NCBI RefSeq assembly: GCF_003667825.1
Contig: NZ_CP033043.1
Span: 4,906,501 to 4,970,500 of the forward strand
Length of the DNA stretch: 64,000 nucleotides
Source of the DNA: Metabacillus litoralis
Lineage (GTDB): Bacteria; Bacillota; Bacilli; Bacillales; Bacillaceae
Direction of reading: 5' to 3'
A program made the position numbers and the translations under genes. Under the pieces are notes generated by a model that saw nothing but the letters and a program-made list of their open reading frames with translations, was not told the DNA's origin and searched no databases. Positions 38,938 through 61,349 of the stretch are shown one piece after another. How positions within the stretch are numbered: position 1 is the stretch's first letter; every line of letters starts with the position of its first letter.

Positions 38938-39331
38938 TGTTGTTCATTAGGTGGATGAATGACAAAAGTGGCGGTGTAGAAGAGAGAGTGGTGTCGTTCA
39001 TAGGGGCGATGAACGACAAAAGTGTTGAGGTAAGAGAGAGTGGTGTCGTTCATAGGGGCGATGAACGACAAAAGTGTTGAGGTAAGAGAGAGTGGTGTCG
39101 TTCATAGGGGTGATGAACGACAAAAGTGTTGAGGTAAGAGCGAGTGGTGTCGTTCATAGGGGTGATGAACGACAAAAGTGTTGGTGGAAGAGCGAGTGGT
39201 GTCGTTCATAGGGGAGATGAACGACAAAAGTGTTGGAGAGGAGAGAGAGTGGTGTCGTTCATAGGGGTGATGAACGACAAAAGTGTTGAGGTAAGAGAGA
39301 GTGGTGTCGTTCATAAGGTGGATGAACGACA
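38938..39331. repeat. Tandem palindromic array 1, 52-bp period
   Basis: Eight units. Each has a left arm TGTCGTTCAT, a 7-nt loop (mostly AGGGGYG), a right arm ATGAACGACA and a 25-bp purine-rich linker. The left arms start at 38938 (degenerate), 38992, 39044, 39096, 39148, 39200, 39253 and 39305. A 52-bp period is not a multiple of three, so coding is unlikely. From 39332 to the next gene I see only a possible TATAAT at 39499. Confidence 0.95.
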
Positions 39332-39553
39332 AACCCTAGATAGAATCAGTCACAGATGGTCTTCAAAAGCCCGGATGATGAAGCCCAGCCCAATAGAATC
39401 CCCACAAACGTTCTTCAGAACCCCCAATCAATCAAAATATAAAAAATCAAACATACACAAAGAAGAAAAAATTCCCTAATATTTCTATTAAACTATATTA
39501 TAATGAAAGTAATGAGCAATGGCTCAGAAACATGAATTAAGGGGGATGGAGAA

Positions 39554-40726
39554 ATGCGAGAGGTTGTGATTACTGCAGCAGTGCGAACACCTATTGGTTC
39601 TTTTGGAGGCGCTTTCAAAGACCTTTCACCTACACAATTAGCTGTACCTGTTCTAGACGAGGTTGTAAAAAGAAGTAAGCTTCAAAAGCAAGATGTGGAA
39701 GAAGTGATTTTAGGACATTGTATTCAAAGGACAGATGAGCCTAATACAGCGAGGACAGCGGCTCTATTAGCTGAATTTCCTGATACAACAACAGGTTATA
39801 CAATCCAGCGACAGTGTGCATCAGGGTTACAGGCTATTTTATCTGCAGCTATGCAAATTCAAACAGGACATTCAAATATTGTGATAGCAGGCGGAGTGGA
39901 GGTAATGAGCTCAAGTCCATACTTACTTAAGCAGCATCGATGGGGATCACGTCTTCAGCATGGCCAGGTAACAGACAGTGTGTGGGAAATATTAGAGGAT
40001 CCAATTCACCATATAATGATGGGGGAAACAGCTGAAAATGTGGCAGAGGAATATGGTATCACAAGAAAAGAGCAGGATGAACTTGCATTATCAAGTCATA
40101 ATCGTGCTTTAGCGGCAATTGAAGGTGGGAAGTTTGCACAAGAAATCTTGCCGATAAGTGTGAAAACGCGTAAAGGGGAAAATGTTGTTTCTCAAGATGA
40201 AGGACCACGACAGGTTTCAAGTGATAAACTCACGGCTTTAGCACCGATTTTTAGAGAGAATGGAACAGTAACAGCCGGGAATGCTTCTTCCTTGAATGAT
40301 GGGGCGGCTGCACTTGTTTTAATGTCAAGAGAAGAAGCGGAAAAAAGAGGATTGCCGATTTTAGCGAAAATATCACACTATACTGTTGCTGGGGTAGATC
40401 CAAAAGTAATGGGAATCGGTCCTGTTCCAGCTATTCAAAAGGGATTAGCATCATTAAATTGGTCTGTTCAAGATCTAGATGTTGTTGAAATAAATGAGGC
40501 CTTTGCTGCTCAATATCTTGCTGTTGAGAAACAGCTGGAGCTGGATAGAGAAAAAGTAAATGTTAATGGAAGTGGAATTAGCTTAGGACATCCAATTGGC
40601 TGTACAGGTTCTCGTATTGTGGTTAGTCTTTTGCATGAAATGCAACGAAGAGAGGCGCAAAAAGGTCTTGCTGCATTATGTGTAGGTGGTGGCATAGGGG
40701 TAGCCTTGTTTATTGAAAGAGACTAA
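39554..40726 (+). CDS. Acetyl-CoA C-acetyltransferase (thiolase)
   Basis: 390-residue thiolase of the biosynthetic/degradative acetoacetyl-CoA type. It has nucleophilic Cys in QRQCASGLQA, the NEAFA His-binding loop and the C-terminal GHPIGCTGSR and GGGIGVAL. It condenses or cleaves acetyl-CoA units. B. subtilis YhfS is a thiolase from this general region, and orthology is possible but not shown. ATG 39554 follows GGGGGATGGAG. It stands alone, convergent with an MFS gene. Confidence 0.9.
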   Translation: MREVVITAAVRTPIGSFGGAFKDLSPTQLAVPVLDEVVKRSKLQKQDVEEVILGHCIQRTDEPNTARTAALLAEFPDTTTGYTIQRQCASGLQAILSAAMQIQTGHSNIVIAGGVEVMSSSPYLLKQHRWGSRLQHGQVTDSVWEILEDPIHHIMMGETAENVAEEYGITRKEQDELALSSHNRALAAIEGGKFAQEILPISVKTRKGENVVSQDEGPRQVSSDKLTALAPIFRENGTVTAGNASSLNDGAAALVLMSREEAEKRGLPILAKISHYTVAGVDPKVMGIGPVPAIQKGLASLNWSVQDLDVVEINEAFAAQYLAVEKQLELDREKVNVNGSGISLGHPIGCTGSRIVVSLLHEMQRREAQKGLAALCVGGGIGVALFIERD

Positions 40727-40734
40727 GAAATAGC

Positions 40735-40767
40735 AAGAGGCTGAGATTCTCAGTCTCTAATTTTGTT
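40735..40767. terminator. Bidirectional terminator, thiolase and MFS
   Basis: AGAGGCTGAGA pairs with TCTCAGTCTCT with almost no loop, flanked by AT-rich tracts. It overlaps the stop codon of the convergent MFS gene. Confidence 0.65.
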
Positions 40768-41889
40768 TTGAGTCAATCTGTTATAGCTTAGTAGAAAAGT
40801 GAATGCAACTCCAAACAAAACAATAAATAATAGAAGTACATACTGAAAAGATAAAAGGTTTGCTACGAGTGGACCTATACTAGCACCTGTTAATAATGTA
40901 AATGAATACAAAGAAATGGCTGTTGCTCGCTTATCCCCGGCCGATTCACCGATAAATGTAATGAGTGATGGAATAAAAATAGCGACAGCAGAGACAAAGA
41001 ATAAGGATAAGATGGTGATTAGTATGAGCTGTTTTGTTAATAACATGAGTGCGAGGGAAGAGATGATCATCGCTATGCAAGTAAGCAAGATGTTAATGAG
41101 TGAATATTTTTTTATCCAAAAGCTGCTGAATAAGGAAAGAGGCGTACCAATTAAGGCGATACATCTACTGTAAAAAAGTTCTTTTTCTAGTTCAACATAG
41201 TATTGAGCAAATTCTTCATAAATAGAAACAAATGACATCAAAGTAATAAAGGTTATGCTAAGTCCTAAAATGATTGGGGTTTGAATTAGTCTACCTGTTG
41301 TGAAGGTGTCGGCAGGTTTCCTTTTCTTTTGAACGGACACATTAGGAAGAAGATAGAAGGCACATAGAGACAAACATAAATAACTTACCCCGAAGAAATA
41401 AAAAACAGCCCGCCAATCTAGCACATTCACCGTTAGCGAACTAATCAGTTGTCCGATAATACCAGCCATTAAAAACCCTGTATTAATGATCGCAATAATG
41501 AATGTTCTCCTGTTTACTGTAAACGCATCAAAGCAATAGGCATAGGCAACAGGGGCAAAGCTTCCTAACACAAATCCTTGAAGTCCTCTAGAAAGGTAAA
41601 AACTTGTGAGTGAAGTGGAAAAGGTGATTATCAGCGTTAAGCAAAAGGAGGCAACCATGCCGAAAAACAATACATTTCTTTTTGAAAGTGAAGCTGATAT
41701 TGGACCAAAGCATAGTAGTCCTGTTGCGTAACAAAACGTAAAGATTGTACTTGAAAAAACGGCTTCACCATATGTAATCGACAGCCCTTCTGCAAGTTCG
41801 GTATAAATCGGGATAAGTAAATAAATATTACTAGCCACACAAACAGCCGCAAACCAGAAAAACAGTTCCACGATACGATCCTTCATCAT
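40750..41889 (-). CDS. MFS transporter
   Basis: 379 residues with twelve predicted membrane helices, in the class of arabinose-efflux-like permeases (DHA type), with a typical loop 2-3 motif (GPISASLSKRN). The substrate is unknown. ATG 41889 (MMKDRIVELFF) has GGAGGT upstream; the frame extends 20 codons further, but without a ribosome site. No regulator is adjacent. Confidence 0.85.
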   Translation of the reverse strand: MMKDRIVELFFWFAAVCVASNIYLLIPIYTELAEGLSITYGEAVFSSTIFTFCYATGLLCFGPISASLSKRNVLFFGMVASFCLTLIITFSTSLTSFYLSRGLQGFVLGSFAPVAYAYCFDAFTVNRRTFIIAIINTGFLMAGIIGQLISSLTVNVLDWRAVFYFFGVSYLCLSLCAFYLLPNVSVQKKRKPADTFTTGRLIQTPIILGLSITFITLMSFVSIYEEFAQYYVELEKELFYSRCIALIGTPLSLFSSFWIKKYSLINILLTCIAMIISSLALMLLTKQLILITILSLFFVSAVAIFIPSLITFIGESAGDKRATAISLYSFTLLTGASIGPLVANLLSFQYVLLLFIVLFGVAFTFLLSYNRLTQNKIRD

Positions 41890-42030
41890 CAGATACCTCC
41901 TAATGATAACGTATGTTTCAAGAGTAATAGAGGTGTATTCCTTATACAAAAGTTGGTAGAGATGAAAAATGGAATTTGCCTGTAAAGTAAAGTAAAATAG
42001 TAAGAGATAGCTAGATCGAAAATTAATACT

Positions 42031-42072
42031 AAAAAACTACCACGCTACTTTAGTTGTGGTAGTTGTTTTTTC
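42031..42072 (+). terminator. Hairpin with T-run in the addB leader
   Basis: AACTACCAC (42035-42043) pairs with GTGGTAGTT (42056-42064), followed by GTTTTTT. It lies 60 bases upstream of addB and is not next to any plus-strand gene end. It may attenuate addB transcription, or work on the opposite strand, where it also has a T-run. Confidence 0.5.
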
Positions 42073-42132
42073 ATATAAGAACAAAGAAAATGACCGTTTA
42101 ATAACACTCTAAAACGTAAGTGGGGAATAAAC

Positions 42133-45100
42133 ATGAGTATTCAATTTATCTTGGGGCGCTCTGGAACCGGGAAAACAGAGACGATGTTAAATGAAATAAG
42201 AGACAGGCTCTTTCAAGAACCAATTGGCCGTCCGATTATTTATCTCGTACCAGACCAAATGACGTTTGGGGCAGAATATGAGTTAATACGTACACCAAAT
42301 TTAGGTGGGATGATACGTGCACAAACATTTAGCTTTAGCCGTTTAGCTTGGAGAGTTTTACAGGAAACAGGGGGAATGACTCGTCATCATTTATCTGGTA
42401 CTGGAATTCAAATGCTTCTCCGGAAACTCGTTGAGGAGTATAAACAAGATTTTAAAGTATTTGCCAAAGCAAGTGATAAAAATGGCTTTATTGAACAGCT
42501 AGAAGTTATGTTAACAGAGTTTAAACGATATTGCTTATCACCTCAAGAGTTGGAAGAGTTTGTAGCAAATGCTCAAACCGAGCATGATCGTAAATCATTA
42601 ACCGATAAACTTCATGACATGGCCATTCTTTATAAACAACTGGAAATTCAATTAAGCCATAAATACGTAGATTCTGAGGATTATTTGAAGCTATTAGCTG
42701 AAAAGGTAGAAAACTCAAGTTATTTACAATCTGCTGATATTTATATTGATGGCTTTCATAGCTTTACGCCACAAGAATATGAAGTGGTTGCTGCCTTAAT
42801 GAAGCATGCACAAAATGTAAAGATTGCTCTTACTGCAGATAAAGCATATAAAGAATTCCTGCCTCATGAATTGCACTTATTTCAAATGACGGGAAAAACG
42901 TACAATACCATTCTCGAGCTGGCTACTGAGGCAGGTAAGCAAGTGGACGAGCCAATAGTTCTTAAAGAACAGCATCGCTATGCTGGAAGTCAGTCGTTAC
43001 AACATTTAGAAGCATTTTATGATATAAGACCAACAACTGTTTTTGATCAAGATCCTGATGTTACGATTTTTCAGGCTACCAATCGCCGCTCTGAGGTTGA
43101 AGGAATTGCAAGGGAAATTCAATCACTTATTAGAAATGGTCATTATCGTTATCGTGATCTTGCTCTACTTATACGAAATTCCAATGATTATCGAGATGTG
43201 ATTGAACAGGTATTCCGTGATTATGAAGTACCGTTTTTTATTGATCAAAAGCGTTCCATGCTCAATCATCCTTTAGTGGAGTTAATTCGTTCTACAATCG
43301 AAATTATCAATGGATTTTGGCGTTATGAAGCAGTATTTCGTGCTGTGAAAACAGAGCTGCTGTTTCCGATTAAAAAAGACAAATATGCTATGCGCGAAGA
43401 TATGGACTTGTTAGAAAACTATGTTCTTTCTTATGGCATTCAGGGATCGAAGTGGACAAATGGGGATCGTTTTCGTTACCGCCGTTTCTATTCACTTGAT
43501 GATGAATTTGTTGTCACAGATGACGAAAAAGAAATGGAGGACAAGCTAAATCAGTTACGAGAGCTTATTGTTCAACCAATTCAAACTTTGCATAAAAGGT
43601 TAAAGCGAAGTCAAAATGGTCAAGAGATGGCAGAAGCTTTGTTTCTTTATTTAGAAGAATTGCACATTCCTGAAAAGCTTGAAGGACTTCGGATTGCAGC
43701 AGAAGAAAAAGGGTTGTTATTAGAAGCGAGAGAGCATGATCAGGTTTGGCAGGCAGTCATAAACTTATTAGACGAGTTCGTTGAAATGATGGCGGAAGAA
43801 CCTGTGTCTTTAAAGCTTTTCTCAGAGATGCTTGAAACAGGTTTGGAGTCAATGAAATTCTCGTTAGTGCCACCAGCAATTGACCAGGTGCTAATTGCAG
43901 ATCTTGAAAAATCCAGGTTTTTCAACGTGAAGTGCTCATTTATTGTTGGAGTAAATGATGGGGTTATTCCTGCTCGACCAAAGGAAGAAGGCATTTTAAC
44001 AGAGGATGATCGAGAGGCTCTTCATTATCAGGGGGTCAATCTTGCACCAACCGCAAGACAGCAGCTGCTTGATGAAAACTTTATCATTTATATGGCATTA
44101 TCAAGTTCATCTGAAAAATTATATCTCTCCTATGCGATGGCGGATGAAGAAGGAAAGGCATTGTTGCCTTCTGTCATTATTAAGCGAATGGAAGAAATGT
44201 TTCCAACAATAAAGCAGCAGCGCTTATTGAATGAGCCGGAGCAGCTTTCACCAAAAGAGCAATTATCGTTTATCGTAAACCATCATGTAACACTTTCTTA
44301 TGTTACATCTCAATTGCAATCGTGGAAAAGAGGATATCCGATTCACTCATTATGGTGGGATGCTTATAACTACTTTGTCTCATCTGATAATCAACAACTC
44401 ACTCAGAAGGTGTTAAGCAGTTTAACGTATGAAAATAGACCAGAACAGCTAGAAACATCTGTTAGTCGTGAACTATATGGTGAACATATTCAAGGAAGTG
44501 TGTCGCGAATGGAGAAATTCAACAGCTGCCCATTCTCTCATTTTGCTTCACATGGTTTAAAGCTAAGAGAAAGACAGTTTTTCAAGCTTGAGGCACCTGA
44601 TATAGGGCAAATGTTCCACTCTGCCTTGAAACTGATTTCTGATCGCTTACATCATTTAAAATTGGATTGGAAAGAGTTAACGAAGGATCAATGTGAGCGA
44701 CTTTCTAATGATGCGGTTGAGCAGCTTGCACCAAGATTACAAAAAGAAATCTTATTAAGCTCAAATCGTTATCATTATATCAAGCGAAAGCTACAGAAAA
44801 TTCTTGCCCGTGCTTCATCTATTCTTAGTGAACACGCAAAGGCGAGTGGCTTTGCACCAGTTGGCCTAGAGCTTGGTTTTGGTAAAGGTGGAGAACTACC
44901 ACCCATTCGTTTTACATTGCCAAATGGCTGTACGATGGAGGTTGCGGGAAGAATTGATAGAGTTGATAAAGCAACAGGTTCAAATGGTGTACTGTTAAGA
45001 ATTGTTGATTATAAATCAAGTGAAAAAAATGTCCAGCTTTCTGAGGTCTATTATGGTTTAGCGCTTCAAATGCTAACCTATTTAGATGTTATTATTTCGA

Positions 45101-45624
45101 ACTCAAAGCTGTGGTTAGGAATTGAAGCTACTCCTGCCGGGGTATTATATTTCCATGTTCATGATCCAATGATTCAGGCTTCTTCTCTTTTACCGGAAGA
45201 AAAGCTTGATGATGAAATTTTTAAGAAGTTTAAAATGAAAGGACTTTTACTCGGTGATGAGGAAGCAGTGAAATTGATGGATCAGTCTCTTACGGAAGGA
45301 ACCAGTTCAAATATCATTGCTGCCGGCTTGAAAAAGGATGGAGGATTTCGCTCCACATCCTCTATAGCGAGTGAAGCTGAATTCGAGTTATTGCGTCAAC
45401 ACGTGCGATCCACTTTCAAGAAGATTGGAACGAATATTACAGATGGAATAATCGATATTAGCCCTTACAAGCTTAAGGATAAAATGCCTTGTACGTATTG
45501 TGAATATAAATCTGTATGTCAATTTGATGAATCGTTAGAGGAAAATAACTACCGTATCTTAAAAAGTGAAAAAAATGATGAAGTATTAAAACGAATGAGA
45601 GAGGAGGCTGGAGTTGATGAGTGA
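42133..45624 (+). CDS. addB: AddB, ATP-dependent helicase-nuclease subunit B
   Basis: 1163 residues. AddB is the Chi-recognising partner of AddA in the double-strand-break resection complex, the Gram-positive equivalent of RecBCD. The N-terminal Walker A reads GRSGTGKTE. The C-terminal RecB-type nuclease reads GRIDRVDK...LRIVDYKSS, and the [4Fe-4S] cysteines are visible as NSCPFSH and a C-terminal CTYCEYKSVC. ATG 42133 follows AAGTGGGG. It overlaps addA by 8 bases and begins the addBA-sbcDC operon. Confidence 0.97.
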   Translation: MSIQFILGRSGTGKTETMLNEIRDRLFQEPIGRPIIYLVPDQMTFGAEYELIRTPNLGGMIRAQTFSFSRLAWRVLQETGGMTRHHLSGTGIQMLLRKLVEEYKQDFKVFAKASDKNGFIEQLEVMLTEFKRYCLSPQELEEFVANAQTEHDRKSLTDKLHDMAILYKQLEIQLSHKYVDSEDYLKLLAEKVENSSYLQSADIYIDGFHSFTPQEYEVVAALMKHAQNVKIALTADKAYKEFLPHELHLFQMTGKTYNTILELATEAGKQVDEPIVLKEQHRYAGSQSLQHLEAFYDIRPTTVFDQDPDVTIFQATNRRSEVEGIAREIQSLIRNGHYRYRDLALLIRNSNDYRDVIEQVFRDYEVPFFIDQKRSMLNHPLVELIRSTIEIINGFWRYEAVFRAVKTELLFPIKKDKYAMREDMDLLENYVLSYGIQGSKWTNGDRFRYRRFYSLDDEFVVTDDEKEMEDKLNQLRELIVQPIQTLHKRLKRSQNGQEMAEALFLYLEELHIPEKLEGLRIAAEEKGLLLEAREHDQVWQAVINLLDEFVEMMAEEPVSLKLFSEMLETGLESMKFSLVPPAIDQVLIADLEKSRFFNVKCSFIVGVNDGVIPARPKEEGILTEDDREALHYQGVNLAPTARQQLLDENFIIYMALSSSSEKLYLSYAMADEEGKALLPSVIIKRMEEMFPTIKQQRLLNEPEQLSPKEQLSFIVNHHVTLSYVTSQLQSWKRGYPIHSLWWDAYNYFVSSDNQQLTQKVLSSLTYENRPEQLETSVSRELYGEHIQGSVSRMEKFNSCPFSHFASHGLKLRERQFFKLEAPDIGQMFHSALKLISDRLHHLKLDWKELTKDQCERLSNDAVEQLAPRLQKEILLSSNRYHYIKRKLQKILARASSILSEHAKASGFAPVGLELGFGKGGELPPIRFTLPNGCTMEVAGRIDRVDKATGSNGVLLRIVDYKSSEKNVQLSEVYYGLALQMLTYLDVIISNSKLWLGIEATPAGVLYFHVHDPMIQASSLLPEEKLDDEIFKKFKMKGLLLGDEEAVKLMDQSLTEGTSSNIIAAGLKKDGGFRSTSSIASEAEFELLRQHVRSTFKKIGTNITDGIIDISPYKLKDKMPCTYCEYKSVCQFDESLEENNYRILKSEKNDEVLKRMREEAGVDE

Positions 45625-49345: not shown

Positions 49346-49422
49346 AAAGATGCAATCGGTGAATATCCATCGATTGCATTCTATTGTCCATGTGTAAGTG
49401 GCTAAGAAAGGATGATGAAAAG

Positions 49423-53600: not shown

Positions 53601-54002
53601 TCAATGTTAACTCGTGGTCGCTATGCGATTGAGGTTGATTCACAAGGTGGATTTATTATGAGAGATGATGCAAACGGTGGAGTAAGAAGACCTGTTTCCA
53701 CCTTATCAGGAGGGGAAACGTTCTTAACCTCACTTGCACTTGCCTTATCGCTATCAACACAAATTCAACTTCGTGGTGAATACCCGCTTCAATTTTTCTT
53801 CTTAGATGAAGGGTTCGGAACGTTAGACATTGAGCTACTCGATACAGTCATAACGGCTCTAGAAAAATTGCAATCACAAAATTTATCAGTCGGTGTTATT
53901 AGTCACGTGCAGGAGCTGAGAGCAAGATTGCCACGGAAACTAATTGTGGAGCCAGCTGAACCTTCTGGTAAAGGAACGTCTGTTTACTTAGAATCACTTT
54001 AA
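50601..54002 (+). CDS. sbcC: SbcC, Rad50-like ATPase subunit
   Basis: 1133 residues. The N-terminal Walker A (GPTGSGKSSILDAM) and C-terminal ABC signature and Walker B (STLSGGETFLTSLAL, FFLDEGFGTLD) flank two very long coiled coils. Between them is the zinc hook CPVCGS near residue 540. It forms the SbcCD clamp-nuclease. The ATGA overlap with sbcD signals translational coupling. Palindromic DNA is the classic SbcCD substrate, which is notable because this genome carries palindromic arrays nearby. Confidence 0.96.
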   Translation: MKPITLTVSGLHSFREKQTINFDALCDGGIFGIFGPTGSGKSSILDAMTLALYGKVERAMNNTHGILNHAEDQLSVSFTFELENASSKKRYVVERVFKRTDDIRVKTAICRLIEEGEEHVVLADKAVDVNDEIYGLLGLTIDDFTRAVVLPQGKFAEFLSLKGAERRQMLQRLFHLEQYGDQLLKKLKRRLATARITRNELEAEKTGLGDASSEAVKEAKKQVKEAEVLLEKRQKELESVTKDYEQKQATWQLQQQRLELEKEKAAVQKDEEQIQSLQQQLKTAEEAEALRPYAEALQARKQEKIQAEGNLEAAKKNVERMKLQYEASSRAYEAIRKEKSEQEPALVAKREKLLQLQKVEEELKQDQTILHELQQKKEELQKQQEHHQSLLTKAHQLVEKAAVKQQTLQEEQKTKTVSAKERDQVRAALEAKQLVQQSKQQFEETHELLEKKTNALNNEKKKYDSLIDQLSVNKKHLENKFNELTSLYFLISERETEYKHFLSIAKHNLEEKIAEEEKAKNQKLALRLVKELKEGAPCPVCGSCSHPSPVHADFDHDEEIEKQLHVMKQQFEQLQSLSQEPHSLKIKAEGLSEQLTADFLFLQDKKLLEEVQVEQLIAPNTNMSLEQGFQTFQLSFKNLNQDFIQLRQSLEKNVKQLRDLQQEEVRSKDGISSANNDVQEWTDKLNEYKEKLQKSLTYYSETFTQIPIENVEKLQKEISEKDEALEQLNERIQKSFSFIEEQEEIVKKQEEFNRHIKEQQIELQASLKSRDFSIKEKQEKLKEVGLEKPISTVIAETNATIKQLAEKENELYQGWQKESNMLHQLQSELAAHERSYEQAKHQVQESEQKWSQVKENTSFKTIEETLASLLGAEKRQQLKSEIEAFLDKMKQLNTDLNRIEEKLGNQQVSQEEWDTIQQIKVEMKQQVEDAVASKGAATNGLQVLLEKHERFVVIENQQKELDDLLGKLEKLQSVFKGNSFVEYVAEEQLQQVSRDASDRLSMLTRGRYAIEVDSQGGFIMRDDANGGVRRPVSTLSGGETFLTSLALALSLSTQIQLRGEYPLQFFFLDEGFGTLDIELLDTVITALEKLQSQNLSVGVISHVQELRARLPRKLIVEPAEPSGKGTSVYLESL

Positions 54003-54101
54003 TAGTTTGGTTGTGAAGTGTTGAATATGTCTCCTTTAGCTTATGAACACATAAGAAATCAACATTCCACAGAACCAATTTGATGATAAAGGGATGTCGC
54101 G

Positions 54102-54410
54102 ATGGGAAAGAAAAAAGAAATTGGGACATGTGAATTGTGTGAAAGAGAAGAAGTTGAAACAACCATTCATCACCTAACACCTAAGGAAATGGGTGGGACC
54201 TTCTTGCCTACAGCAAAGCTCTGTGTGGCTTGTCACAAGCAAATTCATGCATTATATACAAACGAAGAATTAGCTGCAAGGCTTTCAACTATTGAAGACC
54301 TACAACAAGATGAGAAAATCAAAAGCTTTATTAAATGGATTAAAAAGCAACCTTCTAGTAAGTTAGTTCAAACGAGAAAATCCAATGAACGAAAGCAGAA
54401 GGGGCGTTAG
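54102..54410 (+). CDS. yisB: HNH-type protein
   Basis: 102 residues with CELC, TTIHHLTPKEMGG and CVACHKQIHALY, the zinc Cys pairs and the HH...H core of an HNH endonuclease fold. The length and place after sbcC match B. subtilis YisB. Activity is unproven; YisB-type proteins may nick DNA or be inert. ATG 54102 follows GGGATG. A terminator closes the unit. Confidence 0.85.
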   Translation: MGKKKEIGTCELCEREEVETTIHHLTPKEMGGTFLPTAKLCVACHKQIHALYTNEELAARLSTIEDLQQDEKIKSFIKWIKKQPSSKLVQTRKSNERKQKGR

Positions 54411-54447
54411 AAAAGGAAGACTGTCGATGATATCGGCAGTCTTTTGT
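54411..54447 (+). terminator. Intrinsic terminator of yisB
   Basis: AAAGGAAGACTGTCGAT pairs with ATCGGCAGTCTTTT around a tiny loop, with a T-run. Confidence 0.75.
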
Positions 54448-54562
54448 TTATAAGAACTTATAATAAATTGTAACAATTTGGATACAGATTTTGGGGATTT
54501 TTCCATTTATAATTGTAATTGAAAATAATTTGTAATCGCTTACAGAAAAGGCGGTGAAACCT

Positions 54563-55042
54563 TTGAACAAAACAGCACTATTTTTTATTGTATATGCTTT
54601 ACTGATGGTTGGACTAATATTTATGGCAGTAAATATGCCGAAATCAACTATTTCTCCAATAACTGAAAGTCTTATCTCAACAACAGAGGGAGAAAATAGC
54701 CTTGAGAAATTTAAGCAAGAGTTTAATGAAAAGAAGTCGGAAAGTACAGAATCATCAAAAGTTGAATATCCAGCCTACTATTGGATTGCTATTTTTATAG
54801 CTTCTATAATTGATTTTGTTATAGTGATGCTCTGGGTGAACCATGAAAATAAAAAGCGGGAGCAAGGAGAAAATGATAATAATCGAACATCCATTATGAA
54901 GTCTAAATGGTTTTGGTGGGTTGTTGGCTTGGGTGTTGTTAAGCAGAAAAACGACCGACTAAGGTTTGATTGGAAGGTTTGTATTCTTTATCTTGCGTTA
55001 TTAACAGGATTGAAATTATATCTTATGGAAAGTACAGAATAA
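54563..55042 (+). CDS. Membrane protein of unknown function
   Basis: 159 residues from TTG 54563, 6 bases after AAAGGCGGTGA; a GTG at 54554 falls inside that ribosome site. There are three membrane helices (about 3-25, 72-92, 139-156), a charged Ser/Glu-rich external segment between the first two, and a Trp-rich motif (KWFWWVVGLGVV). I do not recognise the family. It lies convergent with gerPF and shares its terminator. Confidence 0.7.
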   Translation: MNKTALFFIVYALLMVGLIFMAVNMPKSTISPITESLISTTEGENSLEKFKQEFNEKKSESTESSKVEYPAYYWIAIFIASIIDFVIVMLWVNHENKKREQGENDNNRTSIMKSKWFWWVVGLGVVKQKNDRLRFDWKVCILYLALLTGLKLYLMESTE

Positions 55043-55045
55043 TGA

Positions 55046-55082
55046 AAAGGCGGAAAAAGTGATTTCATTTTTCCGCCTTATT
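55046..55082. terminator. Bidirectional terminator, membrane protein and gerP operon
   Basis: AAGGCGGAAAAA pairs with TTTTTCCGCCTT around a 10-base loop, with suitable tracts on both sides. Confidence 0.8.
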
Positions 55083-55083
55083 A

Positions 55084-55302
55084 TTAATTATTCGCCACCA
55101 TGTTTTGATCTGTTACATCAGGATCAATTAAATTGGTACCACTTATTCCATTATTAATAATGTGGAAATCTCCTGTGCTTCCTCCGCCAGAGCCTGAGGC
55201 ACTCTTTGACTGGCTTTTTGGGGCAAGATAAAACGTATCCCCAAAGTTAACGACTCCGCCGCCTACTTCATTAATCTTAATTGGACCGACAATAGCTGGC
55301 AT
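55084..55302 (-). CDS. gerPF: Spore germination protein GerPF
   Basis: 72 residues from ATG 55302 (MPAIVGPIKINEVGGGVVNF), with a Ser/Gly-rich middle. GerPF and GerPA are small homologues made late in the mother cell that help nutrients cross the spore coat. AAAGGATG lies 8 bases upstream of the ATG. Last gene of the gerP operon. Confidence 0.93.
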   Translation of the reverse strand: MPAIVGPIKINEVGGGVVNFGDTFYLAPKSQSKSASGSGGGSTGDFHIINNGISGTNLIDPDVTDQNMVANN

Positions 55303-55405
55303 ATAAAACATCCTTTTTATAGTTTCCTAGTACTTTAGTTTATGCACCTGAATACTGAGGTGTTAATCGTTTATCAAAGTTAGTGAGTAGGAGTTATCGG
55401 GCATG

Positions 55406-55771
55406 TTAATCCTTTAATTGGCGAATATGCTTTGTGCGGGACACTGCCCGAATATCCCTTGTAGAGCCAATCTGAAATACTGCCGAACTCGACAGGGCTG
55501 TAACATCCACATGTTGAACGGATATTACGGGCTTTTCATGAAAAAAGTTTGAAATAACAGGTTCATAAAAAACTGGCTGAGGGATTTCTTCCTCAAAGAT
55601 TGGATAAGCTGTTAAATCTCCTTCTGATCCGAAAAAACGTTCTTCCTCCCGCTGAACAGCAAGTGCCTTTACACTAGGTGTTATTTGAACAGAATCACCG
55701 ATGTGAAAAACAGAGCTGATCCCGATTGAGTTAACATAGGTACTTCCTACCTTAGAAATACGGCTAATCAT
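55406..55771 (-). CDS. gerPE: Spore germination protein GerPE
   Basis: 121 residues (MISRISKVGSTYVNSIGISS...), the GerPE family: two halves each with an xxSSxxFxIGDS/T-like strand pattern also seen in GerPB and GerPD. ATG 55771 overlaps the gerPD stop as ATGA, so the two are translationally coupled. A 103-base gap separates it from gerPF. Confidence 0.92.
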   Translation of the reverse strand: MISRISKVGSTYVNSIGISSVFHIGDSVQITPSVKALAVQREEERFFGSEGDLTAYPIFEEEIPQPVFYEPVISNFFHEKPVISVQHVDVTALSSSAVFQIGSTRDIRAVSRTKHIRQLKD

Positions 55772-55944
55772 TTTGGCGCCAACGGCACTAATGGACCAAT
55801 AATAAGAGATTCAGGTGGCGTATCAAAGACAGAAGAAAGAGCAATGGTTTGTGTATCACCGATTAAAAAAACAGATGAGCTAGATACCCCAACAACTTTA
55901 ATAGCTCCCACCTGGATATCTTTATTTACTACTGTAAAATTCAT
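55768..55944 (-). CDS. gerPD: Spore germination protein GerPD
   Basis: 58 residues (MNFTVVNKDIQVGAIKVVGV..., ending GPLVPLAPK). The ATG at 55944 has AAAGGAG upstream, and the stop overlaps the gerPE start by ATGA. The SSSVFLIGDTQTIAL strand resembles GerPB and GerPE. The position between gerPC and gerPE confirms the identity despite its small size. Confidence 0.92.
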   Translation of the reverse strand: MNFTVVNKDIQVGAIKVVGVSSSSVFLIGDTQTIALSSVFDTPPESLIIGPLVPLAPK

Positions 55945-55958
55945 CGTTCTTCACTCCT

Positions 55959-56561
55959 TTATGGAGAATCTTTTGGCAAATGTTGTAGGAAATGCATAAT
56001 GGAATTCTCAACATCCTTCTTCACCAATTCAAAAATTTCCTGTTTTTTATTAAGTAATGAATCTTGTTCAGTAAGAGGCTGAGCATTAATGTAGTATTGA
56101 ATTCTGCTATCAATTTGTTTCCTAATGTCTTCAATAATATGTCTGCGATGAGGGTCATCGAGAGTTAATTCATATTGTTTTTCTGCTTGCTGTATATAAT
56201 GAATACAGTCTTGATTTAGAAAATGGTTAATATCTTGGCTGCATTGCTTCATTAGTTGATCTCGAAGCTGCTGTTGAACACCATTTACGTTCATTCCTTT
56301 TTGTTGAACCTCAAAGTTATCTATCTGCTCAGGGTCGGTCGGATTGAGACCAATATTAAGGGTCCCATCTAACTGTTCAACCTTTAGTTGATCAAATTTA
56401 TACTCAATTCTTTCAATATTTGTGTAAGGTTGTTTTTTTAAGTAGTCCACGTCGGTCCGTAAATCATTTGCTAGTTTAGTAAGTTGTTGGATTTTTTTAT
56501 CCTGCTGCTGAACATAGTGATGAAGCTGTTGGAGGTATTTAGTCATCTCATGATAGTACAA
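55959..56561 (-). CDS. gerPC: Spore germination protein GerPC
   Basis: 200 residues. An N-terminal coiled coil (HHYVQQQDKKIQQLTKLAND) is followed by a mixed domain with the conserved TLNIGLNP. It starts at TTG 56561 behind AGGTGGGTG; an ATG five codons in lacks a ribosome site. Coat-associated and needed for normal spore permeability to germinants, according to B. subtilis work. Confidence 0.92.
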   Translation of the reverse strand: MYYHEMTKYLQQLHHYVQQQDKKIQQLTKLANDLRTDVDYLKKQPYTNIERIEYKFDQLKVEQLDGTLNIGLNPTDPEQIDNFEVQQKGMNVNGVQQQLRDQLMKQCSQDINHFLNQDCIHYIQQAEKQYELTLDDPHRRHIIEDIRKQIDSRIQYYINAQPLTEQDSLLNKKQEIFELVKKDVENSIMHFLQHLPKDSP

Positions 56562-56647
56562 AGCTATTCACCCACCTTTTGGTTCGCTCAAAAGTTGTTA
56601 CTAATAATCTATGCAATAAAATAAAATGGGTGATAGCCTACTTAAAA

Positions 56648-56887
56648 TTAAGTTGTTGCTGTTGGAGAAGAAAGAGGAACAAGAGGTCCCTCAGAAGCCT
56701 CTGCTGCAACACCTGTAGGAGTCTCGGTCAAAATTTGAGGTGCTTCTTGAAAAAATCCACCAGTATTATAAAGATTTGATAGGGGCTTTATCATTCCAGC
56801 ACTCCCGATTTGCAGAACAGAAGAATTGTTTACAGAGCCCACCCGCAGGTAATTTATGCAGATGGTTTGGTTGATATAGAAATTCAC
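56648..56887 (-). CDS. gerPB: Spore germination protein GerPB
   Basis: 79 residues starting NFYINQTICINYLRVGSVNN, closely matching B. subtilis GerPB, with VLQIGSAGMIKPLSNLYNTGG. GTG 56887, with AAAGGGGGATG further upstream. Second gene of the operon. Confidence 0.93.
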   Translation of the reverse strand: MNFYINQTICINYLRVGSVNNSSVLQIGSAGMIKPLSNLYNTGGFFQEAPQILTETPTGVAAEASEGPLVPLSSPTATT

Positions 56888-56970
56888 CTTTCACATCCCC
56901 CTTTTGTAAGTTCATAAAAAGAAAAAAGGCAGGAGTACAGTGAGTGGATAGAACACCCCTACCTCCCAAT

Positions 56971-57192
56971 TTATAAGTTTCCTGCCATTGGCTGGTCAAC
57001 AACATCATTATCATACGTATTGGTAACAGAATTTTGATTGTAAATGTTAAGACCATCACCTGTGTTAAAGGAACCGGCACCAGCAAATGTTTTAACCTCG
57101 CTGTAAGGAGAAATAGTAATAACATCTCCAACATGAACAATGCTGCTTGTTCCTACACTATTTACTTTAAAGGCACCTACAATAGCTGGCAT
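56971..57192 (-). CDS. gerPA: Spore germination protein GerPA
   Basis: 73 residues from ATG 57192 ([20 protein letters not shown]), homologous to GerPF. AAAGGATG precedes the ATG. First gene of gerPABCDEF. The frame is open further upstream to 57252, but that would run across the promoter and is rejected. Confidence 0.93.
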
Positions 57193-57247
57193 AGTCAAAC
57201 ATCCTTTGTTAGTGTTATAAAACAAAGCACGACAATTGGCTTTTCTA

Positions 57248-57277
57248 TACATTATGTTAGAAATGCGAAAAAGTGTG
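57248..57277 (-). promoter_or_regulatory. Sigma-K-type promoter of the gerP operon
   Basis: On the minus strand CACA (57277-57274) lies 17 bases before CATAATGTA (57256-57248), which matches the sigma-K -10 consensus CATANNNTA. The operon is sigma-K controlled in B. subtilis, so this fits late mother-cell expression. Confidence 0.7.
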
Positions 57278-57362
57278 ATAAACGCGGAAAAACAAAGCTA
57301 GGATTTAAAGTAGTATTGAGGTAAGCGATAAGTAGAGTAAGTGAGGAGATCTATTGTTATAT

Positions 57363-57545
57363 TTATAAGTATTCTTTCACTTGTTTATCATCTTTAATTA
57401 GGTGTTTATTATACCCGAGGATTTCTTGTAATAAAAGCATATCAAGCTCTTGGCTGCATTGAATCGTTTGGTCAGAATTAATCCCATATTTTTTGGCTGT
57501 TTTAATCAAGTGCTTTCTTTTTAGTTCAATTTCATTCGTGAACAT
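57363..57545 (-). CDS. yisI: Spo0E-family aspartyl-phosphate phosphatase
   Basis: 60 residues from ATG 57545 (MFTNEIELKRKHL), a two-helix protein with the family motif SQELD. Spo0E/YisI-type proteins dephosphorylate Spo0A-P and delay sporulation. Adjacent to gerPA, as in B. subtilis gerPA-yisI. ATG 57557 four codons upstream is an alternative, but its spacing to AGG is too short. Confidence 0.85.
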   Translation of the reverse strand: MFTNEIELKRKHLIKTAKKYGINSDQTIQCSQELDMLLLQEILGYNKHLIKDDKQVKEYL

Positions 57546-57772
57546 ATTTTTCTCCATCCTAGATTTAAGATTTTGTCGATCAAAATGTAACCAAGTGTCG
57601 TTTAGGACAAGCTTATTATACAACGGATTATCTTATAAAACTTAGATTCGCTAAAATAACAAAAAAGAATACAAAATTCTACAAGAAACAACAGACTTCC
57701 TTCTGAATTTTGTTTCTTTTAATAGAAGGTTGTACAATAAAAGTAGTATTATGCTGAAAGGAAGGGAACATT

Positions 57773-58540
57773 ATGATTGATGCCCATCTCCATCTTGATC
57801 AATATGATTTAAATAAGCTGGAATTTCATATTGATATGTGGCAAAGCCATGGGATTGAAGGCGTTGTAGCGGTTGCTACAAATTTACAATCAAGCTATAA
57901 AACATTAGAGATAAAGCTTAAGTACCCTACATTTGTACGTGCTGCGATTGGCCATCATCCAGAAGCCCCTCCATCAACTAGTAAAGACCTAGCTGAACTT
58001 CTGAACTTAATAAAAAAGGAGAAAAACCACTTGTCAGGTATTGGTGAGATTGGTCTTCCAACCTATCAAAAGGGGTCTTTATATGAAGTGTATGGTCAAG
58101 AACCATTTTGCGAACAATTAGAAGCGTGTTTAGAAATAGCAAAATCAGTAGATCTTCCTGTTGCTTTACATGCTGTTCATAACGAGTCAGAGAGGGTGCT
58201 TTTACTATTGAAAAAGCATAAAATAAAGCAGGCACATTTTCATTGGTTAAAAGCCTCGAATAAAATTGTTCAAGATATAATCTCCTGTGGGTATTATATT
58301 TCTGTTACACCAGAGGTTTGCTATCGGGAACGGGACCAGCGTCTTGTCAAAATGATCCCAATTGATCAATTATTAATTGAAACGGATGGACCTTGGAAGC
58401 ATGGTGACCTCTTTCAGCACCAAGACACAACTCCTCTCTTTTTAAAGGATATCGTGGACTCCTTATCGAATATACTTTCAATATCAACTGTAAACATAAA
58501 TGAAATACTATTGGCAAATACTAAAAGGCTTTATAAGTGA
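57773..58540 (+). CDS. TatD-family metal-dependent hydrolase
   Basis: 255 residues with the TIM-barrel metal motifs DAHLHLD, GIGEIGL, LHAVHN, HFHWLKAS and IETDGPW. TatD proteins are DNases or general phosphoesterases; the exact substrate is unknown. ATG 57773 follows GAAAGGAAGGG. It occurs just before yisK; I do not know it from this place in B. subtilis, so no symbol is given. Confidence 0.85.
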   Translation: MIDAHLHLDQYDLNKLEFHIDMWQSHGIEGVVAVATNLQSSYKTLEIKLKYPTFVRAAIGHHPEAPPSTSKDLAELLNLIKKEKNHLSGIGEIGLPTYQKGSLYEVYGQEPFCEQLEACLEIAKSVDLPVALHAVHNESERVLLLLKKHKIKQAHFHWLKASNKIVQDIISCGYYISVTPEVCYRERDQRLVKMIPIDQLLIETDGPWKHGDLFQHQDTTPLFLKDIVDSLSNILSISTVNINEILLANTKRLYK

Positions 58541-58563
58541 TTCTATAGTAGTGGAGGATTTTT

Positions 58564-59466
58564 ATGAAATTTGTTTTAGCTACAATACATAGCGAACCAT
58601 TTATTGGATTATTACATGGAGAAAAAATTATTGATTTAAACAAAGCGGAACAGGAAATATTTGAAATTACTTCATTCCCAAGATCACTATTGGAATGTGT
58701 AACTTTAGGAGAAAAGTTTGTTCAAGACGTAATCCAAATTGTTGATAAAATAAAGAATGCTGATGGACATGAAGGGTATGTATATTCATTTTCGGATGTT
58801 AAAATACAAGCACCTATTCCAAGACCAACAAAAAATATATTTTGTGTAGGAAAGAACTATCGAGAACACGCAATTGAAATGGGAAGTGAAGAGGACATAC
58901 CAAAGCATCTTATGATGTTTTCAAAAGCTCCAACATCTGTAATTGGTCATGAAGATGAAATTGATCCTCATCTACATATTACAAGTGAGCTCGATTATGA
59001 AGGTGAGCTTGCGGTGGTCATTGGTAAAAAAGGAAAACAAATCAAAGAAGAAGAAGCAATGAATTATGTGTTTGGCTATACAATTTTAAACGACATTACT
59101 GCTCGAAATCTTCAATCACAGCACAAACAATTTTTAATTGGCAAAAGTTTAGACACCTCTTGTCCAATGGGGCCTTATTTAGTTCATAAGTCAGCTATAA
59201 AAGATCCTTATGACTTAAGCATTAAAACAAAAGTGAATAATGAAGTGAGACAAGATGGACATACAAAAGATATGATTTTTACAATCGAGAATATTATCTC
59301 AACTCTTTCTCAAGGAACAACACTTGAGCCAGGGGATATCATTGCAACAGGAACCCCAGCTGGTGTTGGAAAAGGATTTACCCCTCCGAAGTTTCTGAAG
59401 CCAGGAGATGTAGTTGAAATTGAAGTTGAAGATATTGGGATCTTGAGAAATAAAATCATGGGATAA
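58564..59466 (+). CDS. yisK: Fumarylacetoacetate-hydrolase-family protein YisK
   Basis: 300 residues. The N-terminal 80 residues precede an FAH domain with FCVGKNYREHA, the metal-binding ELDYEGELAVVIG (E-x-E) with D in NDITARNLQ, and GTPAGVG. B. subtilis YisK (301) has been linked to oxaloacetate decarboxylation and to the cell-shape protein Mbl. ATG 58564 follows GTGGAGG. A short hairpin (GGAGCC/GGCTTC then T6, about 59476-59502) ends the unit. Confidence 0.88.
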   Translation: MKFVLATIHSEPFIGLLHGEKIIDLNKAEQEIFEITSFPRSLLECVTLGEKFVQDVIQIVDKIKNADGHEGYVYSFSDVKIQAPIPRPTKNIFCVGKNYREHAIEMGSEEDIPKHLMMFSKAPTSVIGHEDEIDPHLHITSELDYEGELAVVIGKKGKQIKEEEAMNYVFGYTILNDITARNLQSQHKQFLIGKSLDTSCPMGPYLVHKSAIKDPYDLSIKTKVNNEVRQDGHTKDMIFTIENIISTLSQGTTLEPGDIIATGTPAGVGKGFTPPKFLKPGDVVEIEVEDIGILRNKIMG

Positions 59467-59632
59467 TACATGGAAAGGGAGCCGATCATAAGGCTTCTTT
59501 TTTAGTAGATTTTTATGAACAACAGCGTTTTCAAAAAAAAGACACAAGATAATGAATGTTTACAGCTCTTTCTTTAATATTCGTCTTAAATCATGCTAAA
59601 ATAAGGTTGTCTTTAACTAAGGAGGAAAAATG

Positions 59633-59992
59633 ATGACACATGCACACATTACTACATGGGTTGTAGCGATTATTCTTTTCTTTGTTGCACATTCTTTATT
59701 TAAGTCTGGAAAAGAAAAGCCATCAAAAATTGTTCATATGGTTTTACGCTTGTTTTACATTTTAATTGTGATTACAGGTGTTATTCTTGTTACTGGTGTG
59801 TATCAGTTAGATGGGGAATACATAGCTAAAATTGTTTTAGGAATCTGGACGATCGGTGCAATGGAGATGGTTCTGGTTAGATTGAAAAAGGGAAAACCAA
59901 CAAGAGTTTTCTGGATTCAATTTGTAATTGTTCTACTTTTAACAATTGTATTAGGAATGCGTCTACCTTTAGGAATTTGGAGTTTTTCTTAA
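59633..59992 (+). CDS. yisL: YisL-family membrane protein
   Basis: 119 residues with four membrane helices (DUF1516 type), the same size as B. subtilis YisL (118) and in the same place after yisK. ATG 59633 lies 7 bases after GGAGG; ATG 59630 is possible but tight. Function unknown. Confidence 0.88.
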   Translation: MTHAHITTWVVAIILFFVAHSLFKSGKEKPSKIVHMVLRLFYILIVITGVILVTGVYQLDGEYIAKIVLGIWTIGAMEMVLVRLKKGKPTRVFWIQFVIVLLLTIVLGMRLPLGIWSFS

Positions 59993-60011
59993 AGAGTAGC
60001 GGGATAGAAGG

Positions 60012-60058
60012 CTGTAGATAGACTCGACTGACCATCGAGCTGTCTGCAGTTTTTTTTG
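60012..60058 (+). terminator. Intrinsic terminator of yisL
   Basis: CTGTAGATAGACTCGA folds onto TCGAGCTGTCTGCAG around a 7-base loop, then T8. The tandem array begins 12 bases later. Confidence 0.8.
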
Positions 60059-60069
60059 TTTGGTAAGAG

Positions 60070-60742
60070 ATGAAGACCAATACAAGGGCAGGAGTACAAA
60101 GACATGGTCTTCATGCAAGAGGTGAAGACCAAAGCAAGGGGGAAATTTAGAAGAAATGGTCTTCATACAAGAGATGAAGACCAATGCAAGTGCGAAAATC
60201 AGAAGAAATGGTCTTCATACAGGAGATGAAGACCAATGCAAGTGCGAAAATCAGAAGAAATGGTCTTCATGCAAGAGATGAAGACTAATGCAAGGGCGAA
60301 ATTTAGAAGAAATGGTCTTCATGCAAGAGATGAAGACTAATGCAAGGGGGAAAATCAGAAGAAATGGTCTTCATGCAAGAGATGAAGACTAATGCAAGTG
60401 CGAAAATCAGAAGAAATGGTCTTCGTACAAGAGATGAAGACCAATGCAAGGTCAAAAATCAGAAGAAATGGTCTTCATACAGGAGATGAATGAAGACCAA
60501 AGCAAGGTCAAAATTTAGAAGAAATGGTCTTCATACAAGAGATGAAGACCAATGCAAGTGCAAAAATCAGAAGAAATGGTCTTCATACAGGAGATGAAGA
60601 ACAAAGCAAGGTCAAAATTTAGAAGAAATAGTCTTCATACAGGAGATGAAGACCATTGCAAGTGCAAAAATCAGAAGAAATGGTCTTCATACAAGAGATG
60701 AAGACCAATGCAAGGTCAAAAATCAGAAGAAGTGGTCTTCAT
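60070..60742. repeat. Tandem palindromic array 2, 52-bp period
   Basis: About 13 units. Each has a left arm TGGTCTTCAT, a 7-nt loop (mostly RYAAGAG or ACAGGAG), a right arm ATGAAGACCA and a 25-bp linker such as ATGCAAGTGCGAAAATCAGA plus five bases. Left arms start at 60105, 60157, 60209, 60261, 60313, 60365, 60417, 60469, 60525 (after a 4-bp insertion), 60577, 60629, 60681 and 60733. The stretch from 59993 to 60788 holds only the yisL terminator and this array. Confidence 0.95.
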
Positions 60743-60788: not shown

Positions 60789-61349
60789 CTAAAACTTACT
60801 ACAAACAAGTCGTCTTTCACCCAAACTTGTTGTTATTTCAAACCGATCTCCTGAATGGATGCCTCTTTCAAAGTGGTGTTGAATGGCGCAGATGGAATCT
60901 TCATTATCAAATTGAAAGAAAGAAACACCTTTTTTATTGACGCGATTTTCCATAAATAATAATTGATTATACGAATAAATACAGTCGTAAGGCGAAAAGC
61001 CAAGAGAGTTTAATTGTTTGATCAATCTGACAAATGTTTCATCTTGAAGTTCCTTTAACATTTCATCTAAAGCTAAAGGTAATTTTTTTCTTATCCGCAC
61101 TGTATCACCATGATTTAATGATAGCGTTCCCATGTCAGTCTTGATCTTACCTAAGCCTATCCATCTCCCCTTTGTCCACCCGGATGGATTTAAAATTTCT
61201 AGATGAGAATTTTGAATCTCATCTAATAAATGAAGCTCATCACTCATATCATCATAAATGACATACTGATCATTTGTAATTTCGATCAGTCCAGTTAAAT
61301 ACGAACGTTTTTGATTTAATAGTAAGTCTGTTCGTTTAATTGGAAACAT
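60789..61349 (-). CDS. yisN: YisN-family protein (DUF2777)
   Basis: 186 residues from ATG 61349 (MFPIKRTDLLLNQKRSYLTG), 8 bases after GGAGG. It looks cytosolic, with a beta-rich N-terminal half and helical second half, and has no catalytic motif I recognise. Divergent from asnO, as in B. subtilis yisN-asnO, which supports the symbol. The frame stays open upstream to 61445 without a ribosome site. Confidence 0.82.
   Translation of the reverse strand: MFPIKRTDLLLNQKRSYLTGLIEITNDQYVIYDDMSDELHLLDEIQNSHLEILNPSGWTKGRWIGLGKIKTDMGTLSLNHGDTVRIRKKLPLALDEMLKELQDETFVRLIKQLNSLGFSPYDCIYSYNQLLFMENRVNKKGVSFFQFDNEDSICAIQHHFERGIHSGDRFEITTSLGERRLVCSKF

What the first reader, a model, noticed from the sequence alone, without database searches (positions are those of the whole stretch)
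38938..60742. Two tandem arrays of different sequence share one exact architecture
Array 1 (38938-39331) and array 2 (60070-60742) both have a 10-bp arm, a 7-nt loop, a 10-bp arm and a 25-bp purine-rich linker, period 52 bp. The arms differ (TGTCGTTCAT versus TGGTCTTCAT, 7 of 10 positions shared), as do loops and linkers, yet the spacing is the same. Each starts right after the terminator of a plus-strand gene. The same geometry with different sequence points to a common generating mechanism or a shared structural function, for example a protein that binds hairpins at about five helical turns (52 bp is near 5 x 10.5). I know of no named repeat class with this layout.
Basis: seen in the sequence. 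Interest (0 to 1): 0.75.

Follow-up and report, generated by a model that had tools for sequence, protein, structure and literature searches.

The report
Nuclease genes with matching repeat arrays
The two 52-bp repeat arrays belong to a large, apparently undescribed family of helically phased DNA arrays in spore-forming bacteria, where each kind of array sits beside its own gene for a nuclease-like protein of unknown role and is also scattered through the genome, so that protein probably recognises and spreads them.

Summary
The window lies in a (probably Metabacillus) genome with at least 25 such arrays; two TTCAT-N7-ATGAA cores 52 bp apart occur 176 times, the reversed control 0 times. Arrays of this layout occur in 23 of 150 relatives. 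They are tied to one gene: a ~302-aa NERD-domain (PF08378) nuclease-like protein. In 30 of 30 fetched loci of this subfamily a 52-bp-period array lies beside the gene, mostly 3'; in 12 of the 13 more distant members the array sequence is unrelated, the period the same. Of 30 other NERD genes 1 has a nearby repeat. A sister NERD group has mostly 20.6-bp-phased repeats (20 of 24). Between close relatives the protein's C-terminal domain changed together with the array class, and genome-wide counts follow (135/21/9 against 43/64/67). Across 23 pairs the outer arm tracks the C-terminal domain, the inner arm the nuclease domain. Best explanation: NERD proteins recognise the 10-7-10 site; cutting and repair amplify and disperse arrays, in logic like RAYT-REPIN but with unrelated parts. 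The gene-array link is shown; binding, cutting and spreading are inferred.

The parts
38938..39331 (+). Array 1: 8 dyads of class CGAC (TGTCGTTCAT-N7-ATGAACGACA; the first one variant), 25-bp purine-rich linkers, period 52
   Evidence: same site in relatives G002 and G007 carries CGAC plus GACC units
60070..60742 (+). Array 2: class GACC (TGGTCTTCAT-N7-ATGAAGACCA), 10 exact cores plus degenerate ones, period 52; begins with a right arm, ends with a left arm
   Evidence: present in G002 and G007 with 8 and 9 exact cores
38367..38870 (+). Gene 5' of array 1, signal-peptidase-like (name by eye, not from a family search); its hits' 3' side also holds 52-bp arrays with altered arms in G001, G012 and G004
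59630..59992 (+). Gene 5' of array 2 (120 aa), present in 21 of 21 genus genomes
60789..61445 (-). DUF2777 gene converging on array 2
39554..40726 (+). Thiolase-like gene 3' of array 1 (name by eye)

Best explanation
The arrays are the DNA half of a two-component system. The other half is a NERD-domain (PF08378) nuclease-like protein of ~302 aa; in this genome its gene lies outside the window, at G000:C1:2931310-2932215. SHOWN: every examined member of this NERD subfamily has a 52-bp-period array beside its gene; array sequence differs with the paralogue while the period does not; the same array class is dispersed elsewhere in the genome; where the protein's C-terminal domain changed between close relatives, the neighbouring and the genome-wide array class changed with it. 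INFERRED: a NERD dimer reads the 10-7-10 site, the nuclease domain contacting the inner five bases beside the 7-bp spacer and the cysteine-rich C-terminal domain the outer five; 52 bp puts successive sites on one helical face, five turns apart; cutting in or near the spacer, with recombinational repair from other units or arrays, expands, homogenises and spreads arrays, mainly into neutral DNA behind gene ends.
For: 30 of 30 fetched subfamily loci have a 52-bp or multiple-of-52 array beside the gene; the 30 best-scoring other NERD genes of the class: 1 of 30; random 3.9-kb tiles 16, 6 and 7 of 102. Co-occurrence over 150 genomes at E<1e-100: both 16, gene only 2 (G004, G125, which do have degenerate arrays beside the gene), array only 7, neither 125, Fisher p 2.5e-14, phylogeny not corrected. 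In genus g6 (44 of the 150) only G073 has arrays and only it has a strong match. Class switch: CGAC 135/21/9 and GACC 43/64/67 in G000/G002/G007, matching the class beside the gene, with 87-97% identity per 30-residue window in residues ~60-195 but 50-73% beyond ~195. Partial Mantel: outer arm with C-terminal domain 0.30 (p 0.0095), inner arm with nuclease domain 0.49 (p <0.0005). G000's second member of the subfamily has its own dispersed 52-bp family. Conserved D77, E90, K92 and C220, C223, C237, C240. Gene plus array sits as a unit in a gap that is empty in relatives.
Against: No binding, cutting, transcription or movement was observed. Arrays without a detected subfamily gene: G005, G016, G020 (89% complete), G126; broken gene in G006 and G019. 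G129 has 16 GACC palindromes without that class beside its gene. Only 16 of 31 units have a best dyad better than shuffles at p<=0.05, 4 of 13 among units of unrelated sequence. No clean target duplication or insertion junction was found. No NERD-302 on plasmids or phages. Mantel tests do not remove shared ancestry fully; 8 of 30 loci were dropped from them.
Confidence: 0.55

Rival explanations
1. Chromosome-organising or boundary sites: the NERD protein binds arrays cooperatively at gene ends without cutting, and the host selects number and place of arrays.
For: Arrays lie outside ORFs (0 of 81 inside) and are over-represented between convergent genes, 34 of 81 against 70 of 450; fixed 52-bp phase with A/T at three linker places.
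Against: Patchy occurrence, 0 to 299 matches inside one genus; array sites differ between species and arrays change class and number between close strains; conserved nuclease residues.
Confidence: 0.15
2. Addiction or restriction-like system: the NERD protein is a harmful nuclease that its array, as DNA decoy or as RNA, holds in check or uses as self mark; dispersed arrays are spares.
For: Nuclease-type gene with a tandem array directly beside it, reminiscent of type III toxin-antitoxin loci (recalled); weak PglW and MAD6 similarities of the NERD domain.
Against: The array is mostly 3' of the gene, type III antitoxin arrays are 5' (recalled); tens of arrays lie without the gene; hairpin pairing is not kept; no assignment to a defence family.
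Confidence: 0.15
3. Ordinary satellite DNA made by replication slippage, with the NERD link accidental.
For: Copy-number change and homogenisation between relatives look like slippage or unequal exchange.
Against: 30 of 30 linkage against 1 of 30 for other NERD genes; class-specific co-change; one period across unrelated sequences.
Confidence: 0.03

Closest known systems
REP/REPIN elements with RAYT transposases (PMC3116915: abstract and outline seen; PMC3733652, PMC2817692: listing and start of abstract only)
   Same: Dispersed extragenic palindromes, over 100 copies, proximal to a specific DNA-processing gene that is thought to spread them.
   Different: Here long tandem arrays of fixed 52-bp period; the linked gene is a NERD protein, not a Y1 tyrosine transposase; sequence classes co-vary with the protein while spacing stays.
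MIRU/VNTR-type intergenic tandem repeats (recalled)
   Same: Intergenic, tandem, unit number varies between close strains.
   Different: Shared dyad architecture and a partner gene.
Type III toxin-antitoxin loci (recalled)
   Same: A nuclease gene beside a tandem array.
   Different: Array mostly 3', dispersed without the gene, other protein family.
CRISPR arrays (recalled)
   Same: 27-bp dyad repeats separated by 25 bp.
   Different: Linkers are near-identical within an array; no other gene is shared by the 21 NERD loci.
NERD domain proteins (PF08378; SmdA, PMC9040797, passages read)
   Same: The partner protein is a NERD protein, 63.9 bits against a cut-off of 22.1.
   Different: No link to repeats is described in what I saw; that paper states that the importance of the NERD domain had not been studied in any bacterial protein.

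Membership tests
NERD (PF08378) | Score above Pfam gathering threshold | tested here: met
   63.9 and 53.1 bits, cut-off 22.1
NERD (PF08378) | Nuclease-type acidic and lysine residues | tested here: met
   D77 and K92 invariant, E90 at least 90% in 48 sequences; that these are catalytic is recalled, not tested
REP/REPIN-RAYT | Dispersed extragenic palindromes, over 100 copies | tested here: met
   135 CGAC and 43 GACC palindromes in G000; 0 of 81 arrays inside ORFs
REP/REPIN-RAYT | GTAG or CGTC tag beside the palindrome | tested here: not met
   No such fixed tetramer in 102 array consensuses
REP/REPIN-RAYT | Linked Y1 tyrosine transposase | tested here: not met
   The only gene shared by all 21 loci is NERD; no genome-wide RAYT search was made
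CRISPR | Unique spacers between repeats | tested here: not met
   Within-array linker identity about 84-96% per column
CRISPR | Adjacent cas genes | tested here: not met
   No shared gene but NERD at 21 loci; no cas family search was made
Type III toxin-antitoxin | Array 5' of the toxin gene, transcribed RNA antitoxin | tested here: not met
   Array mostly 3'; transcription not testable here
Known RNA family | Rfam match at gathering score | tested here: not met
   0 matches in the window
Known defence system protein | PADLOC or NCBIfam assignment | tested here: not met
   Only weak hits of the NERD domain: PglW 16 bits, MAD6 19.1 bits with cut-off 460

The most novel reading that the evidence does not exclude
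A whole clade of NERD nucleases builds and spreads its own DNA: each protein cuts at a site it reads with two modules (nuclease domain for the inner half-site, C-terminal domain for the outer), and repair turns the site into tandem arrays whose period, five turns for one group and two turns for its sister, is set by the protein and not by the sequence. Most tandem repeats of such genomes would then be made this way, a new kind of homing satellite with its own maker.
Probability: 0.45. Interest if true: 0.95.

Novelty: categorically new. Interest (0 to 1): 0.88.

Why it matters
It would give a testable role to a widespread protein domain of unknown function and an origin to many intergenic tandem repeats of Bacillales. 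A recognition code in which array sequence changes with one protein domain while spacing stays constant would be a natural set of DNA-binding nucleases with readable specificity. It would be a second route, besides RAYT-REPIN, by which bacteria acquire genome-wide repeats. Arrays that vary in unit number between close strains could also serve as typing markers.

Tried and rejected
Coding repeat: 52 is not a multiple of 3 and 0 of 81 arrays lie inside an ORF. RNA family: none. Phage origin: only 3 viral contigs with one two-unit match each, arms unlike the family; NERD-302 absent from the plasmid and phage collections. Tyrosine-recombinase core site (arms around a variable 7-bp overlap): considered from the anatomy, not tested, dropped when flank clustering pointed to NERD. 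A 45-bp element with a 7-bp target duplication: array ends keep no common phase. Hairpin under selection: arms often asymmetric, changes mostly one-sided. Literal repeat letters in papers: useless. Tying the 103-bp array of the 400-kb stretch to a NERD-330 array: no BLAST support. Plasmid search with the first part of the AddB gene, made only to place the genome: no help. Sequence search for a solved relative: none by single sequence, nothing significant by profile (best E 0.26). From the Mantel test (23 pairs: L256 plus 22 of the 30 loci) I dropped L264 and L269 (no clear unit), L265 and L284 (broken frame), and L266, L276, L278 and L282 (frame not parsed by my script).
Full report
OBSERVATION. 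Both arrays exist as described, with period 52, 10-bp arms, 7-nt spacer and ~25-bp linker; a few spacing slips occur (53, 54, 56 bp). The whole genome (G000, 5,230,624 bp, one contig) has 176 matches to two TTCAT-N7-ATGAA cores 52 bp apart and none to the reversed pattern., whose listings are capped, together show at least 25 array loci. In a 400-kb stretch chosen for co-linearity with relatives, the gaps of exactly 7 and exactly 35 bp stand out (44 and 42 cases) and no other spacing does; G007 (18 and 13) and G002 (27 and 22) show the same.

SPREAD. Of 150 relatives 23 have the two-unit pattern, in 11 of 62 genera, with 0 to 299 matches inside the genus. A scan of named genomes for ten consecutive units gave 93 stretches; the 80 whose titles I saw are from Bacillus, Neobacillus, Heyndrickxia (coagulans 36D1 among them), Lysinibacillus, Metabacillus, Ureibacillus, Peribacillus, Scopulibacillus, Sutcliffiella, Fredinandcohnia, Mesobacillus, Oceanobacillus, Aquibacillus, Pallidibacillus and Cytobacillus, with 80 cores in C. 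massiliigabonensis. The window's genus is probably Metabacillus: the contig of same-genus genome G014 has exactly the length (5,602,542) of the Metabacillus sediminilitoris contig that holds homologue P0059.

ANATOMY. In 102 array consensuses the outer-arm G at -12 and C at +12, which were not part of the search, are each 88% conserved; spacer and linker are weakly conserved except for A/T at three linker places about 11 bp apart. Within arrays the outer arms are 93-96% identical per column, the spacer 80-91%. Arms are often asymmetric, and in 113 arrays with 1391 units arm changes are one-sided in 333 cases, double and complementary in 45, double and not complementary in 23. Of 81 arrays with both neighbours called, 0 lie inside an ORF, 34 between convergent genes (background 70 of 450) and 9 between divergent ones (background 107 of 450); gene calls were crude and arrays lacking a neighbour in the fetched piece were dropped.

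EVOLUTION AT ONE PLACE. Over 400 kb, G000, G007 and G002 (mostly 91-98% nt identity) have 8, 3 and 5 TTCAT arrays. One array lies between a stop codon and a terminator-like hairpin in G000 and G002 and is absent in G007; another is two dyads in the two relatives and about nine in G000. At the site of window array 1, G000 has 8 dyads of class CGAC, G002 two CGAC and then mostly GACC units, G007 both. Among the other 18 genus genomes, loci of that gene hold no exact core, but in G001, G012 and G004 the 3' side of the gene carries 52-bp repeats with altered arms. I saw no clean insertion junction or target duplication.

THE PARTNER GENE. Clustering of ORFs around about 100 arrays showed NERD proteins beside arrays in 8 loci (L033, L038, L063, L066, L115, L116 and G000 within about 220 bp, L083 at about 1.1 kb). 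A protein search over 150 relatives gave 30 loci, the best match of each of 30 genomes. All 30 have an array of period 51-53 or a multiple beside the gene, mostly on its 3' side. In the first 17 (54-100% identity) the core is of the TTCAT type, in places degenerate; of the other 13, 12 have units unrelated in sequence. Examples are TGTCCCGATT-7-TATCGAGACA, TGTCTTCGAG-7-CTCGATGACA and TGTCCACGAG-7-CTATTGGACA. A 7-nt spacer is among the best-scoring dyads in 20 of 31 units, but only 16 of 31 best dyads beat shuffles at p<=0.05, and 4 of 13 among units of unrelated sequence. In 44 genomes the match was below 1e-50, so not all members were examined. A second NERD copy in G098 (59% identity) has a 52-bp array with yet other arms.

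CO-OCCURRENCE. At E<1e-100 the counts over 150 genomes are both 16, gene only 2, array only 7, neither 125. The two gene-only genomes, G004 and G125, have degenerate arrays beside the gene. Of the seven array-only genomes, G006 and G019 have a broken gene and G111 a more distant one (48%) with a TTCAT array beside it; G005, G016, G020 and G126 remain unexplained. In genus g6, 44 of the 150 genomes, only G073 has arrays and only it has a strong match.

CONTROLS. The 30 best-scoring PF08378 genes of 299 class genomes have a nearby tandem repeat in 1 of 30. Loci of the two genes beside the window arrays have one in 9 of 51, all at the sites described above, so this is not an independent control. 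Tiles of 3.9 kb in G000, G007 and G002 have 52-multiple arrays in 16, 6 and 7 of 102, and repeats of 20.6 bp or two or three times that in 0 of 306. NERD proteins of ~325 aa (20 picked by reading-frame length, and 4 of G000) have tandem repeats within 250 bp in 20 of 24, 17 of them 5' of the gene; periods are mostly 20-21, 40-42, 63 or 101-103, with two off this scale (114, 236). In the tree the 52-bp group is one clade (100/100) and, with 22 of the 24 ~325-aa proteins, forms a repeat-linked clade (99/97); the other two, without repeats, fall with the remaining NERDs. One ~325-aa protein groups next to the 52-bp clade, two members of the large clade lack nearby repeats, and the bootstrap had not settled.

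SPECIFICITY. G000 has three members of the subfamily. The second (45% identity) has its own 52-bp family, 101 BLAST pieces at about 22 further places; the third (42%) has a 154-bp family with, by eye, two further arrays in the 400-kb stretch. All 14 arrays of that stretch have periods 52, its multiples, 154 or 103; in G007 and G002 1 of 6 and 1 of 10 do not fit any family. The single 103-bp array of G000 could not be tied to a gene. The array beside the gene is CGAC class in G000 and GACC class in G007 and G002. Genome-wide exact palindromes follow: CGAC 135, 21, 9 and GACC 43, 64, 67 in G000, G002, G007. In the 17 other genomes searched CGAC occurs only in G003 (1) and in G129 (27), one of whose arms beside the gene is CGAC; GACC occurs in G018 (22) and G014 (14), one of whose arms is GACC, but also in G129 (16), G126 (3) and G089 (2). 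The G000 and G007 proteins are 79% identical: 77-87% per 30-residue window before residue 60, 87-97% to about 195, 50-73% beyond; G002 and G007 are 95% identical. Over 23 protein-array pairs the outer five bases correlate with the C-terminal domain given the nuclease domain (0.30, p 0.0095), the inner five with the nuclease domain given the C-terminal domain (0.49, p<0.0005), with automatically chosen arms; without G007 and G002 the values are 0.28 (p 0.029) and 0.46 (p 0.0005).

THE MODULE. At 21 NERD loci no other gene is shared by all; the next cluster is ABC-type proteins in 10. Neighbours differ except in the close trio and partly between G003, G006 and G018. In the trio, gene plus array fills the gap between a znuA-like and a cydA-like gene (names by eye). 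Of nine other genus genomes printed, seven (G001, G003, G004, G005, G006, G012, G019) have the same two genes with the gap empty, and two (G015, G020) another upstream gene. No plasmid or phage record matched.

MECHANISM. Shown: linkage, co-change, dispersal, constant period. Inferred: recognition of half-sites by two modules of a dimer, and break-and-repair amplification. D77, E90, K92 and four cysteines (C220, C223, C237, C240) are conserved in 48 homologues; that these are catalytic and zinc residues is family knowledge. Fewer exact units where the gene is broken or missing (G019 1, G005 9, G006 37) than in G003 (67, intact gene) fit decay after loss, but n is small and G020 (38) and G126 (49) speak against it.

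LITERATURE. Searches for NERD with tandem repeats found nothing, nor did searches for 52-bp repeats in Bacillus or palindromic tandem repeats in Heyndrickxia coagulans. [quoted passage not shown] PMC10910872 names it once, in a legend. The library holds open-licence papers only. The 2004 paper that named NERD is recalled, not seen.

Noticed in passing
L250-L253 and L369-L388 (NERD ~325 aa loci in G000 and class genomes): A second NERD group has mostly 20.6-bp-phased tandem repeats (20-21, 40-42, 63, 101-103 bp) within 250 bp of the gene in 20 of 24 loci, mostly 5'.
   Followed up: partly
L254; G000:C1 about 4523230-4524031, 4564942-4565607, 4575542-4576106: 154-bp-period arrays (15 turns), the first one 3' of G000's third subfamily member; units look related by eye.
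   Followed up: partly
G000:C1 about 4639072-4640011: 103-bp-period array without an identified partner gene.
   Followed up: partly
window 20572-22786 and 26798-29005: Two near-identical sets of ORFs (286, 114, 156 and ~248 aa) with the same short repeat at 21422 and 27648: a duplicated or mobile segment.
   Followed up: no
G007:C1 about 3020900-3029300: Where G000 and G002 have the array at 4548599, G007 lacks it and carries about 8 kb of other sequence in that interval.
   Followed up: no
L025 (viral contig IMGVR_UViG_3300025459_000003) 699-1827: 17 TTCAT-N7-ATGAA cores, only one pair of them 52 bp apart; possibly another kind of repeat.
   Followed up: no
L259 623-864: 36-bp repeats inside the znuA-like gene upstream of the NERD module.
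   Followed up: no
G126 and G020: 49 and 38 array matches but no subfamily NERD gene found.
   Followed up: no
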